A program made the position numbers and the translations under genes. A DNA stretch of 64,000 nucleotides from Pseudorhodoferax aquiterrae (GTDB lineage Bacteria; Pseudomonadota; Gammaproteobacteria; Burkholderiales; Burkholderiaceae_C), in the NCBI RefSeq assembly GCF_014652235.1, contig NZ_BMYK01000004.1:248001-312000 (forward strand), written 5' to 3'. Positions 11,935 through 19,839 of this stretch are shown here, in pieces. Under the pieces are notes generated by a model, which did not search any database, had not been told where the DNA came from, and saw only the letters and a program-made list of their open reading frames with translations. Each line of letters starts with the position of its first letter. Positions within the stretch are counted from its first letter, which is position 1.

Positions 11935-13536
11935 ATGAGTTCCAGCCCTTCCTCCCCTCTGGCCACCGAGCGCGCGGCGCTGTTCGCGGCGCTTGGCGCT
12001 GCGCCGGCGTTCGACATCGCCATCGTCGGCGGTGGCGCCACCGGCCTGGGCGTGGCCGTGGACGCGGCCTCGCGCGGGCTGCGCACGCTGCTGGTGGAGT
12101 CGCACGACTTCGCCAAGGGCACGTCTTCGCGCGCGACCAAGCTCGTGCACGGCGGTGTGCGCTACCTGGCCCAGGGCAACGTGGGCCTGGTGCGCGAGGC
12201 GCTGCACGAGCGCACCACGCTCCTGCACAACGCGCCGCACCTGGCCCAGCCGCTGGCCTTCGTGATGCCCTGCTACGCGCTGTGGGAGGGGCCGTTCTAC
12301 GGCGCCGGCCTCAAGGCCTACGACCTGCTGGCCGGCGACGCGGGCCTGGGTTCCACGCGCTTCCTGTCACGAGGCGGCGTGCTGTCGGCCTTGCCCAACA
12401 TCCGGCCGCAGGGTCTCAAGGGCGGCGTCTTGTACTGGGACGGCCAGTTCGACGATGCGCGGCTGGCGCTGGCGCTGGCGCGCACGGCGGCGCGGCATGG
12501 GGCGCTGGCGATCAACTACTGCGCGGCCACGGGCCTCGTGCACGAAGGCGGCAAAGTCGTCGGCCTCACCTTGGAAGACCGCGAGACCGGGGCCGTGCAC
12601 ACCGTGCGCGCCGGTTGCGTGGTCAATGCCACCGGCGTCTGGGTCGACCAGCTGCGCGCGCAGGATGCCCAGGCGCTGGCACGGCCGGTCACGCCCATCG
12701 TCGCGCCCAGCCAGGGCGTGCATGCCGTGGTCGACCGCGCGTTCATGCCGACCGACCACGCGTTGCTGGTGCCCAAGACGGCCGATGGCCGCGTGCTTTT
12801 CGCCGTGCCCTGGCTCGGCAAGCTGATCCTCGGCACGACCGACACGCCGCGCCAGGACCTGCCCTATGAGCCGCGCCCGTTCGCCGAGGAGCTGGACTTC
12901 ATCCTGCGCGAATCGGCCCGCTACCTGGCCCGCCCGCCCACGCGCGGCGACATCCTGAGCTGCTGGGTCGGCCTGCGCCCGCTGGTCAAGCCCTCGGGCG
13001 AGGACGCCGCCACCAAAAAGATCAGCCGCGAGCACACGGTGCAGGTCAGCGCCAGCGGCCTCGTCACCGTGACCGGCGGCAAATGGACCACCTACCGCGC
13101 CATGGCCGAAGACGTGTTGCAGCAATGCTACGCACGCCGGCTGCTGCCCGGCGAAGCGCCGTGCCGCACCCAGCGGCTGCGCCTGGTGGGCGCGGACGAC
13201 CGGTTGCCGCAGGACCGGCCCGCCATGAGCGCGCCGCAGGGCGCGCAAGGCTATGGCAGCGACTGGGCAGCCGTGGCCGCCACGCCAGGAAGTGAGCGCA
13301 TGCTCGGCTCCGGCGTCAGCGAGGCCATGGTGCGCTTCGCCGCGCGCCATGAATATGCACGCACGGTCGAGGACGTGTTGGCCCGGCGCGTGCGTCTGCT
13401 GTTCCTGGATGCACGCCAAGCGGCCGCACTGGCGCGGCCGGTGGCGGAGATCTTGCGCGAGGAGGGCTGCCCCGCCCCCGAGCCCGAATCCTTCCAGGCC
13501 CTGGCCCAGTCCTATCTGCCCGCCACGGCGCCCTGA
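11935..13536 (+). CDS. glpD: Aerobic glycerol-3-phosphate dehydrogenase GlpD
   Basis: Membrane-associated FAD enzyme of 533 residues that oxidises glycerol-3-phosphate to dihydroxyacetone phosphate and passes electrons to quinone. The dinucleotide-binding motif IVGGGATG is at about 30-37. It is followed by the SSRATKLVHGGVRYL stretch and a C-terminal DAO-type domain. It completes the pathway uptake (glpSTPQUV), phosphorylation (glpK) and oxidation. No good Shine-Dalgarno precedes the ATG; a GC-rich hairpin (6-bp stem, 11913-11927) sits just upstream and may lower or regulate translation. Confidence 0.95.
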   Translation: MSSSPSSPLATERAALFAALGAAPAFDIAIVGGGATGLGVAVDAASRGLRTLLVESHDFAKGTSSRATKLVHGGVRYLAQGNVGLVREALHERTTLLHNAPHLAQPLAFVMPCYALWEGPFYGAGLKAYDLLAGDAGLGSTRFLSRGGVLSALPNIRPQGLKGGVLYWDGQFDDARLALALARTAARHGALAINYCAATGLVHEGGKVVGLTLEDRETGAVHTVRAGCVVNATGVWVDQLRAQDAQALARPVTPIVAPSQGVHAVVDRAFMPTDHALLVPKTADGRVLFAVPWLGKLILGTTDTPRQDLPYEPRPFAEELDFILRESARYLARPPTRGDILSCWVGLRPLVKPSGEDAATKKISREHTVQVSASGLVTVTGGKWTTYRAMAEDVLQQCYARRLLPGEAPCRTQRLRLVGADDRLPQDRPAMSAPQGAQGYGSDWAAVAATPGSERMLGSGVSEAMVRFAARHEYARTVEDVLARRVRLLFLDARQAAALARPVAEILREEGCPAPEPESFQALAQSYLPATAP

Positions 13537-13557
13537 CGTGTCTCACGTGTTAGCTAC

Positions 13558-13586
13558 TTGACACGCTTTTCAAGCGCGAACATAAT
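13558..13586 (+). promoter_or_regulatory. Sigma-70 promoter of the spc ribosomal operon
   Basis: TTGACA (13558-13563) and CATAAT (13581-13586) are separated by exactly 17 bases, a near-consensus housekeeping promoter. Transcription would start near 13593, leaving a leader of about 155 bases before rplN. The leader is GC-rich and shows several short hairpins but no gene. It makes the ribosomal block independent of the glp genes. Confidence 0.8.
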
Positions 13587-13748
13587 CGCGGGCTTCGCCC
13601 CTAAAAGGCGATGAAGTTTCTTGCCCAAACGTGAGCGCTCCGAGTGGTTCGGGGTGTGAGCGACGGGCCCAAGACTGACCAGGCGGGTTGCAGGTTCGGG
13701 GTTGTCCCGGTGCCGCGGCCCTCCCGGTACAAGTTGGGAATAAGCTAA

Positions 13749-14117
13749 ATGATCCAAACTGAATCCCGGCTGGACGTGGCCGACAACACGGGTGCGAAGT
13801 CCGTCCTGTGCATCAAGGTGCTGGGCGGCTCCAAGCGTCGCTACGCCAGTGTCGGCGACATCATCAAGGTGAGCGTCAAGGAAGCTGCGCCGCGCGGTCG
13901 CGTCAAGAAGGGCGAGATCTACAGCGCCGTCGTGGTGCGCACCGCCAAGGGCATCCGCCGCGGCGACGGCTCGCTCGTCAAGTTCGACGGCAATGCCGCC
14001 GTGCTGCTCAACAACAAGCTGGAGCCCATCGGCACCCGCATCTTCGGACCCGTGACGCGCGAACTGCGCACCGAGAAGTTCATGAAGATCGTGTCCCTGG
14101 CCCCCGAAGTTCTGTAA
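13749..14117 (+). CDS. rplN: 50S ribosomal protein L14
   Basis: Large-subunit protein of 122 residues, the normal L14 length. It begins [17 protein letters not shown] and has the conserved RKGEIY-type and [13 protein letters not shown] segments. L14 contacts 23S rRNA at the subunit interface. It is the first gene of the spc operon; the S10-operon genes that precede it in many bacteria are not present upstream, where glpD lies instead. Confidence 0.98.
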
Positions 14118-17868: not shown

Positions 17869-19188
17869 GTGGCCACTAGTTCGGCAAACATCGCAAAGAC
17901 GGGCAAGTTCGGCGACCTGCGTCGCCGGCTGGTCTTCTTGCTGCTGGCGCTGGTTGTCTACCGCATCGGGGCGCACATCCCGGTGCCGGGCATCAACCCA
18001 GATCAGCTGCGTCAGTTGTTCAGCGGCCAGCAAGGCGGCATCCTGAACCTGTTCAACATGTTCTCGGGCGGAGCGCTGTCGCGCTTCACCGTGTTCGCGT
18101 TGGGGATCATGCCGTACATCTCGGCGTCGATCATCATGCAGCTGGCGACCTACGTCGTGCCGACCTTCGAGCAGTTGAAGAAGGAAGGCGAGGCCGGTCG
18201 TCGCAAGATCACGCAGTTCACGCGTTATGGCACGCTGGCGCTGGCGCTGTTCCAGTCGCTGTCGATCGCGATCGCGCTGGAAAGCTCGGCTGGCCTGGTG
18301 ATCTCGCCCGGCTTCGGCTTCCGCATGACGGCGGTCGTGAGCCTGACGGCGGGCACGATGTTCCTGATGTGGCTGGGTGAGCAGATCACCGAGCGTGGTC
18401 TGGGCAACGGCATCTCGATCCTGATCTTCGCCGGCATCGCGGCCGGTCTGCCGAGTTCCATCGGCGGCCTGCTGGAGCTGGTGCGCACGGGTGCGATGAG
18501 CATCATCGTGGCGCTGATCATCGTGGTCGTCGTGGCCCTGGTCACCTACTTCGTGGTGTTCGTGGAACGTGGTCAGCGCAAGATCCTCGTGAACTATGCG
18601 CGGCGCCAGGTCGGCAACAAGGTGTACGGCGGGCAATCGTCCCACCTGCCCCTGAAGCTGAACATGGCCGGTGTGATCCCGCCCATCTTCGCCTCGTCCA
18701 TCATCCTGCTGCCGGCGACGGTGGTGGGCTGGATGAGCTCGGGTGGCGAGAGCTGGTTCTCCCGTCTGCTGCGCGATGCCGCCGCGACGCTGAGCCCCGG
18801 CCAGCCGGTCTACGTGATGTTCTACGCCGCGGCGATCGTGTTCTTCTGCTTCTTCTACACGGCGCTGGTGTTCAACAGCCGTGAGACGGCAGACAACCTG
18901 AAGAAGAGCGGCGCGTTTATTCCGGGCATCCGTCCGGGCGAGCAGACCGCACGCTACATCGACAAGATCCTGCTGCGACTGACGTTGGCCGGTGCCATCT
19001 ACATCACCTTCGTCTGCCTGCTGCCGGAGTTCCTGATCCTGAAGTACAACGTTCCGTTCTACTTCGGAGGCACGTCGCTGCTGATCATCGTGGTCGTCAC
19101 CATGGACTTCATGGCCCAGGTGCAGAACTACATGATGTCGCAGCAGTACGAGTCCCTGCTCAAGAAGGCGAACTTCAAGGGCGGTTGA
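17869..19188 (+). CDS. secY: Preprotein translocase subunit SecY
   Basis: Central channel subunit of the Sec translocase, 439 residues with ten hydrophobic segments. Diagnostic stretches are [12 protein letters not shown], the plug-region [22 protein letters not shown] and [20 protein letters not shown]. The start is GTG at 17869, giving the N-terminus [20 protein letters not shown]. It is the last spc gene before the degraded infA and rpmJ. Confidence 0.97.
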
Positions 19189-19199
19189 AGAAGGATTTC

Positions 19200-19331
19200 A
19201 CCGGGAAGGGTCGGACACGCGTCCGCCCCGACTGCGGTGGCAAGGTGACGGTCGAATTGACGCCTTACGACCTGTCGCGAGTGCGGAAGAGGTTCCGCAC
19301 CAATGGGTTGGCAAGGGCAAACAGTTTTAGG
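19200..19331 (+). pseudogene. infA: Degraded infA (IF-1) remnant between secY and rpmJ
   Basis: The 151-base gap between secY and rpmJ, where infA normally lies, encodes only the C-terminal part of initiation factor IF-1. In one frame, codons from 19242 read KVTVELTPYDLSR and then VRKRFR, matching the end of IF-1 (KVTVELTPYDLSRARIVFRAK type). The normal stop is lost and the frame runs on to TAG at 19329-19331. The upstream part (GKGRTRVRPDCGG) has only faint likeness to IF-1. The first roughly 40 residues, including the OB-fold start, are missing. The only in-frame start candidates are a TTG overlapping the secY stop (19185) and internal GTG/TTG codons, so a working IF-1 is unlikely. Confidence 0.8.
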
Positions 19332-19339
19332 AGAGAGTT

Positions 19340-19453
19340 ATGAGAGTTTCGGCTTCGGTCAAGAAAATCTGCCGCAACTGCAAGATCATCCGCCGCAACG
19401 GCGTGGTCCGCGTGATCTGCACCGATCCGCGTCACAAGCAGCGCCAAGGCTGA
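19340..19453 (+). CDS. rpmJ: 50S ribosomal protein L36
   Basis: Very small large-subunit protein of 37 residues, [20 protein letters not shown] and onward. It is the zinc-binding form, with C11, C14, C27 and H32 forming the ribbon. TAGGAGAGAG gives a strong ribosome site before the ATG at 19340. Confidence 0.96.
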
Positions 19454-19473
19454 GCAGGATTTAAGAGGACGTT

Positions 19474-19839
19474 ATGGCACGTATTGCTGGTATCAACATT
19501 CCGCCGCATCAGCACGCTGAGATCGGCCTGACCGCGATTTATGGCATCGGCCGCACCCGCGCACGCAAGATCTGCGTCGCTTGCGGCATCGACTTCGCCA
19601 AGAAGGTCAAGGATCTGACGGACGGCGACCTGGAAAAGATCCGCGACCAGATCGCCCAGTTCACGATCGAAGGTGACCTGCGCCGCGAGACCACGATGAA
19701 CATCAAGCGCCTGATGGACATCGGCTGCTACCGCGGTTTCCGTCATCGCCGCGGCCTGCCGATGCGCGGTCAGCGCACGCGCACCAACGCCCGCACCCGC
19801 AAGGGTCCGCGCAAGGCCGCCCAGGCCCTGAAGAAGTAA
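19474..19839 (+). CDS. rpsM: 30S ribosomal protein S13
   Basis: Head protein of the small subunit, 121 residues, beginning [12 protein letters not shown] and ending in a basic tail ([16 protein letters not shown]). It is first of the alpha-operon set rpsM-rpsK-rpsD-rpoA-rplQ. AAGAGGA lies before the ATG. Confidence 0.98.

What the first reader, a model, noticed from the sequence alone, without database searches (positions are those of the whole stretch)
19189..19339. infA lost from the ribosomal cluster, leaving a C-terminal fossil
The sequence shows secY followed by a short stretch that still encodes KVTVELTPYDLSR and R-x-F-R in one frame, then rpmJ. This is the end of IF-1 without its start, stop or OB-fold N-terminus. 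IF-1 is essential in bacteria studied, and betaproteobacteria often carry a second infA elsewhere, so a paralogue has probably taken over. Such a fossil would catch a gene-replacement event in progress. A less likely option is a short remnant peptide from the TTG at 19185.
Basis: partly seen in the sequence, partly recalled or inferred. Interest (0 to 1): 0.72.

Follow-up and report, generated by a model that had tools for sequence, protein, structure and literature searches.

The report
Relic of a lost infA gene
The gene for translation initiation factor IF-1 has been cut out of its usual place among the ribosomal protein genes, leaving part of its back half as a relic, while three intact IF-1 genes elsewhere in the genome can probably do its job; related bacteria have made the same swap many times.

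Summary
Confirmed. The secY-rpmJ spacer (19189-19339) holds the 3' part of the cluster infA without its start: infA nt 146-215 of 219 align with score 78, shuffle maximum 31. Five of six held species of the genus carry the relic; the sixth has no detectable trace, so an assembly fault is very unlikely. The genome has three intact infA genes elsewhere, all of a second type 57-59% identical to the cluster type; the relic resembles the cluster type. Of 242 family genomes with an IF-1 match, 97 lack a cluster-type copy, and 55 of those have a single IF-1 match. On a 163-row tree, absence needs at least 27 changes, 19 forced by well-supported branches. So this is a finished, often repeated replacement by an old paralogue, like those published for rpmJ and rpsN (PMC8046335). 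A lead remains: a 33-nt block in the relic has 1 change where about 13 are expected at the pooled four-fold rate, and an adjoining 8-bp hairpin is kept through three double changes. Other spacers of the operon behave alike, so I read it as an ordinary structured spacer; a new RNA element is possible but unproven.

The parts
17869..19188 (+). secY, intact, upstream neighbour
   Evidence: 439-aa ORF; relatives of the SecY protein found
19189..19339 (+). spacer that in many relatives holds the whole infA gene
19235..19303 (+). infA relic, secure part: infA nt 146-215 of 219
   Evidence: score 78, shuffle maximum 31 of 100
19195..19234 (+). infA relic, probable upstream part (from about codon 36)
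   Evidence: significant in sister species G004 and G005, not in the window, G002 or G003
19245..19277 (+). 33-nt block almost unchanged in five species; can fold as a 10-bp stem-loop together with 19278
   Evidence: 1 parsimony change in 33 columns; 10 invariant pairs, which are no evidence for or against the stem
19281..19300 (+). 8-bp hairpin with a 4-nt loop, kept through three double changes in five species
19185..19343 (+). 52-aa open frame from the TTG at the secY stop to a TGA overlapping the rpmJ start; probably not a gene
19329..19335 (+). AGGAGAG, likely ribosome binding site of rpmJ
   Evidence: read from the sequence; AGGAG is kept in most aligned spacers
19340..19453 (+). rpmJ, intact, downstream neighbour
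   Evidence: 37-aa ORF; found in 58 of 60 relatives

Best explanation
The cluster copy of infA became dispensable because the lineage also carried an old second type of IF-1 gene at other loci. In an ancestor of the genus the start and about the first 35 codons of the cluster gene were deleted. The rest survives in five of six held species as a relic that changes freely in much of its length and is now part of the spacer between secY and rpmJ. Shown: the relic, its cluster-type character, three intact second-type genes in the same genome, absence of the gene in all six held species of the genus, and repeated absence in the order. Inferred: that the second-type proteins supply IF-1 activity, which of the three does, that one deletion in the genus ancestor explains all six, and the order of events.
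For: Relic against shuffles; the same relic in G002-G005 and a gap of 60 bp in G001; intact infA at this place in the sister genus, G190/L249; three intact copies in the own genome, each over the Pfam cut-off, 57-59% identical to the cluster type; the relic reads LTPYDLSR like cluster-type genes, the three copies LSPYDLTKG or LSPYDLSKG. In the family sample 97 of 242 genomes with an IF-1 match lack a cluster-type copy and 55 of these have one match only. Absence needs at least 27 changes on the tree. A decay series is seen in relatives.
Against: No expression or complementation data. 97 of 242 rests on a score gap as a stand-in for position; it agreed with the DNA in 80 of 80 loci read, but the others were not read. 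The almost unchanged 33-nt block and the kept hairpin do not fit pure neutral decay.
Confidence: 0.92

Rival explanations
1. The relic has been recruited as a cis-acting RNA element: two neighbouring stem-loops upstream of the rpmJ ribosome binding site that tune rpmJ and the alpha genes or protect the transcript. This adds to the main explanation of gene loss and does not replace it.
For: 33-nt block with 1 change against 12.6 expected at the pooled four-fold rate (P about 5e-5, not corrected for picking the block). Hairpin unbroken in 40 of 40 cells with three double changes; no sliding control has any double change. 1 of 134,504 unconstrained simulations with as many variable stem columns kept it whole.
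Against: G001 lacks it. The column-shuffle control reaches the observed values in 10 of 500, and the simulation used equal branches and started from an already perfect hairpin. The four-fold rate differs from 0.07 (rplX) to 0.67 (glpD) between genes; at the lowest rate the block would not stand out. The window's spacer folds no better than its shuffles (z -1.3; local p 0.18). The rpsK-rpsD and rpoA-rplQ spacers of the same species also show kept stems. Repair copying one arm of a near-palindrome from the other could give paired changes without selection (recalled mechanism, not tested). No Rfam family matches the spacer.
Confidence: 0.28
2. The 52-aa frame is a short gene, translated from the TTG at the secY stop, whose VTVELTPYDLS peptide is under selection.
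For: The frame is open in the window, G002, G004 and G005; the single change in the block is synonymous.
Against: In G003 the frame meets a stop after the block. Residues outside the block vary freely. G001 has nothing. Only 16 bits to PF01176.
Confidence: 0.05
3. Assembly error: infA is intact and the assembly dropped most of it.
For: Draft assembly in 94 contigs.
Against: Four other species show the same relic with their own substitutions and a fifth has a 60-bp gap.
Confidence: 0.01

Closest known systems
Deletion of rpmJ (events P50-P52) and rpsN (F81) from the spc operon in lineages with an old second copy elsewhere (PMC8046335; passages seen)
   Same: Same operon; a gene disappears from the cluster where a homologue, judged there to be present in the last common ancestor, exists at another place; type 1 and type 2 copies can be told apart by sequence.
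   Different: Those cases concern Gammaproteobacteria and Bacilli and few events; here it is infA in Burkholderiales, with at least 19-27 changes and relics still readable. In the passages seen, infA is mentioned only as part of the ancestral proteobacterial operon.
infA2 between secY and rpmJ in Bordetella pertussis (PMC7742992; passages seen)
   Same: Same gene order; the cluster copy is listed as 'IF-1 2', which implies another IF-1 gene in a betaproteobacterium.
   Different: The cluster copy is present and listed with expression values there.
Loss of infA from chloroplast genomes with a nuclear copy taking over (recalled; only listed chloroplast papers that mention infA and pseudogenes)
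   Same: The same factor is lost repeatedly from its old gene cluster.
   Different: There the replacement gene is in the nucleus; here it is a second bacterial type in the same genome.

Membership tests
Functional IF-1 gene (PF01176) | Scores over the curated cut-off over the whole domain | tested here: not met
   16 bits against 30.2; profile positions 33-58 of 64
Functional IF-1 gene (PF01176) | Start codon and N-terminal half of the domain | tested here: not met
   Nothing before about infA nt 105 aligns
Gene relic (pseudogene) | Homologous piece at the place of an intact gene in relatives | tested here: met
   intact infA at this place in L249
Gene relic (pseudogene) | Free of selection | tested here: inconclusive
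   Tail 20 changes in 32 columns, block 1 in 33; paired changes in the tail
Replacement by a paralogue, as for rpmJ and rpsN in the spc operon | Intact second-type copy elsewhere in the same genome | tested here: met
   Three copies
Replacement by a paralogue, as for rpmJ and rpsN in the spc operon | Second type older than the loss: found together with the cluster type in relatives | tested here: met
   97 of 145 genomes with a cluster-type copy have two or more IF-1 matches; second-type copies read in G007, G012, G019, G022, G026, G028, G031 and G035, which also have the cluster type
Replacement by a paralogue, as for rpmJ and rpsN in the spc operon | The paralogue supplies the lost function | not testable with these tools
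   Suggested by 55 of 97 genomes with a single, not cluster-type, match
Cis-acting structured RNA | Stem kept by paired changes | tested here: inconclusive
   Three double changes, no broken cell, five sequences, 10 of 500 shuffles as high
Cis-acting structured RNA | Match to a known family | tested here: not met
   No match in the spacer up to E = 1
Cis-acting structured RNA | Effect on expression of the linked gene | not testable with these tools
   needs an experiment

The most novel reading that the evidence does not exclude
The 3' end of the dead infA gene has been kept as a structured RNA leader of rpmJ and the alpha genes in this genus: an almost unchanging 33-nt stem-loop plus a hairpin held by compensatory changes. 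A dead coding sequence would have become a cis-acting RNA, possibly one that was already folded inside the living gene (codon-column shuffles hint at folding in codons 34-64 of intact infA).
Probability: 0.28. Interest if true: 0.6.

Novelty: new member of a known kind. Interest (0 to 1): 0.42.

Why it matters
IF-1 is essential in the bacteria studied (recalled), and the paper seen places infA in the spc operon of the proteobacterial ancestor. Yet in this order absence of the cluster copy needs at least 19-27 changes on a 163-row tree, with an old second IF-1 type in its place. That gives a natural series of stages, from two copies through fresh pseudogenes and 3' relics to a clean gap, in which to study how an essential gene leaves an operon and what the spacer left behind must still do.

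Tried and rejected
Promoter or terminator in the spacer: none found in 18900-19600. Known RNA family: none in the spacer; a sub-threshold Alpha_RBS match (27.6 bits, gathering 38) lies downstream at 19451-19506. Spacers that lost infA being specially structured: weak. Mean z is -0.93 in 69 of them against -0.56 for the last 110 nt before rpmJ in 85 intact rows. Local hairpins reach p <= 0.05 in 22 of 62, but in 63 of 73 rpsK-rpsD spacers of the same group and 52 of 65 of the intact group.

A rule that only the 3' end survives: it holds for 21 of 21 spacers under 236 nt whose relic beat all 100 shuffles (start at infA nt 121 or later), but several are close kin, and of the six longer ones four keep parts before nt 120 (L031, L075, L204, L221). 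Suppressed synonymous variation at the 3' end of living infA genes: not seen (mean third-position entropy 1.33, 1.28, 1.33 in the three thirds). Codon-column shuffles suggest folding in parts of the gene (codons 34-52 z -4.9, 52-64 z -4.1, 9-20 z -4.2, but 33-44 z +2.2), with no control for kinship.

Rows dropped: one search read rplE, rpsD and 'amh' in a wrong frame or as a wrong gene, so they were left out. L030, L042 and L082 had no rpmJ after secY and were dropped. Genomes without an IF-1 match, 8 of 250, are not in the 242. For the tree I read, besides the genus, 50 of the other 94 genomes without a cluster-type copy and 30 of 145 with one, chosen by that label and by a listed rpmJ place, so its proportions are not frequencies; some genomes are in it twice (identical rows L010/L234 and L008/L250). 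In the IF-1 tree few forks are resolved, and L301, which I had labelled second type, is a cluster-type copy. The first alignment of the relic had a wrong stretch for G003 and was redone.

Papers: seven searches listed no title or abstract start about infA loss from this cluster in bacteria; one search was swamped by 'infant' and tells nothing. Passages were seen of two papers. Only open-licence PMC papers are held.

Full report
What is there. secY ends at 19188 and rpmJ begins at 19340. The 151-nt spacer carries the 3' part of infA: 19235-19303 matches infA nt 146-215 of 219 with score 78, against at most 31 in 100 shuffles. Two sister species, G004 and G005, carry the homology upstream to about codon 36 (0 of 200 shuffles as high in each), which maps to window 19195; in the window itself, G002 and G003 that stretch is not significant (46, 181 and 38 of 200). 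The start codon, about codons 1-35 and the stop are gone. A 52-aa frame runs from TTG 19185 to a TGA that overlaps the rpmJ start.

Who else has it. Six genomes of the genus are held. Five, this one included, carry the relic; G001 has a 60-bp gap without a detectable trace. In the group next to the genus on the tree (code g64), G190 still has an intact infA at this place (L249), one species has a decayed copy (L217, infA nt 129-213) and one has none detected (L188). By parsimony the loss is at least as old as the common ancestor of the six, and the place did hold infA before.

What took over. The same genome has three intact infA genes on other contigs, each over the Pfam cut-off. All three are of a second type, 57-59% identical to the cluster type; two of them are about 99% identical over the domain. 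The two types lie on two sides of one weakly supported branch. The relic reads LTPYDLSR as cluster-type genes do, while the three copies read LSPYDLTKG or LSPYDLSKG, so it descends from the cluster gene and is not a stray piece of a paralogue. In the family sample, 242 of 250 genomes have an IF-1 match. Sorted by best score (a clear gap between E = 6.5e-26 and 9.3e-25 among the listed matches), 97 lack a cluster-type copy, 55 of them with a single match; 145 have one, 48 of them as the only match. The sorting agreed with the DNA at the place in 80 of 80 loci read. So the second type alone seems enough in many species; this is inferred from presence, not tested.

How often. On a FastTree tree of 163 rows from eight proteins of the cluster, presence or absence of infA between secY and rpmJ needs at least 27 changes; starred branches alone force 19. 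The count cannot tell loss from gain, but regain at exactly this place is unlikely. Stages of decay are seen: a near full-length degenerate copy in Massilia aurea (L075), partial copies (L204, L221), short 3' relics, and spacers without a trace. Of 76 rows without the gene, 27 have a relic that beats all of 100 shuffles. In the 21 of these with a spacer under 236 nt the relic comes from nt 121 or later; of the six with a longer spacer four keep earlier parts. One simple reading is that the start region goes first and the end beside the rpmJ ribosome binding site goes last; many rows are kin, and I do not press it.

Is the relic still doing something. In five species the 33-nt block 19245-19277 has one parsimony change. 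At the four-fold rate pooled over 14 genes, 0.38 per site (592 changes at 1548 sites), 12.6 are expected, P about 5e-5 before correcting for having picked the block. The rate ranges from 0.07 to 0.67 between genes, and at the lowest one the block would not stand out. The tail next to it has 20 changes in 32 columns, yet its 8-bp hairpin (19281-19300) is unbroken in all five species, with three pairs changed on both sides. Only 1 of 134,504 unconstrained simulations with at least as many variable stem columns kept it whole, in a simple model with equal branches; the column-shuffle control is milder (10 of 500). Against a special function: G001 has no trace of it; the window's spacer is not more stable than its shuffles (z -1.3; local p 0.18); and other spacers of the operon in the same species behave alike: rpsK-rpsD has 2 of 19 pairs with double changes and 4 of 113 cells broken, rpoA-rplQ 3 of 14 and 0 of 84, in structures predicted from those same sequences. 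Local hairpins are commoner in rpsK-rpsD spacers (63 of 73 at p <= 0.05) than in spacers that lost infA (22 of 62). I conclude that the relic most likely lives on as an ordinary, partly structured spacer; a dedicated RNA element remains possible.

Comparison with the known. The closest published case seen is the deletion of rpmJ and rpsN from the same operon in lineages with an old second copy (PMC8046335, passages seen). That paper places infA in the spc operon of the proteobacterial ancestor; the passages seen do not treat its loss. In Bordetella pertussis the copy between secY and rpmJ is listed as infA2, IF-1 2 (PMC7742992, passages seen), so two IF-1 genes in a betaproteobacterium are not new. 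Seven searches of the held papers listed no report of infA loss from this cluster in bacteria (uninformative). The finding is a new and well-documented example of a known kind of event.

Noticed in passing
window 11935-14117: An ORF that looks like a glycerol-3-phosphate dehydrogenase (recalled likeness) stands right before rplN, so the S10 genes that usually precede rplN are not next to it here.
   Followed up: no
L002, around 1100-1430: One of the three second-type infA genes lies beside a gene with a glycine-rich tail that looks like an RNA-binding (RRM) protein, read by eye; L001 has a pilin-like gene and L003 a HIT-like gene nearby (by eye).
   Followed up: no
intact infA genes of relatives, codons 34-52: The middle of living infA genes folds strongly (mean z -2.28 over 85 stretches) and more than codon-column shuffles (z -4.9): perhaps an RNA structure inside the coding sequence. 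No control for kinship.
   Followed up: partly
L222 and L223, spacer nt about 15-35 after secY: The spacers of G009 and G015, from two different genera, share a nearly unchanged stretch with TATAGT that looks like a promoter -10 box, upstream of a well-kept infA 3' relic (by eye).
   Followed up: no
L077 (Sutterella wadsworthensis), secY-rpmJ spacer: 234-nt spacer without detectable infA and the lowest folding z of the 69 spacers (-4.8).
   Followed up: no
G128 (family sample): Listed as 100% complete, yet with neither an rpmJ nor an IF-1 match; probably the ribosomal cluster is missing from the assembly, but IF-1 should be looked for.
   Followed up: no
L075 (Massilia aurea): A near full-length but degenerate infA between secY and rpmJ, with an intact gene in its tree neighbour L083: a young, independent loss outside the window's family.
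   Followed up: partly
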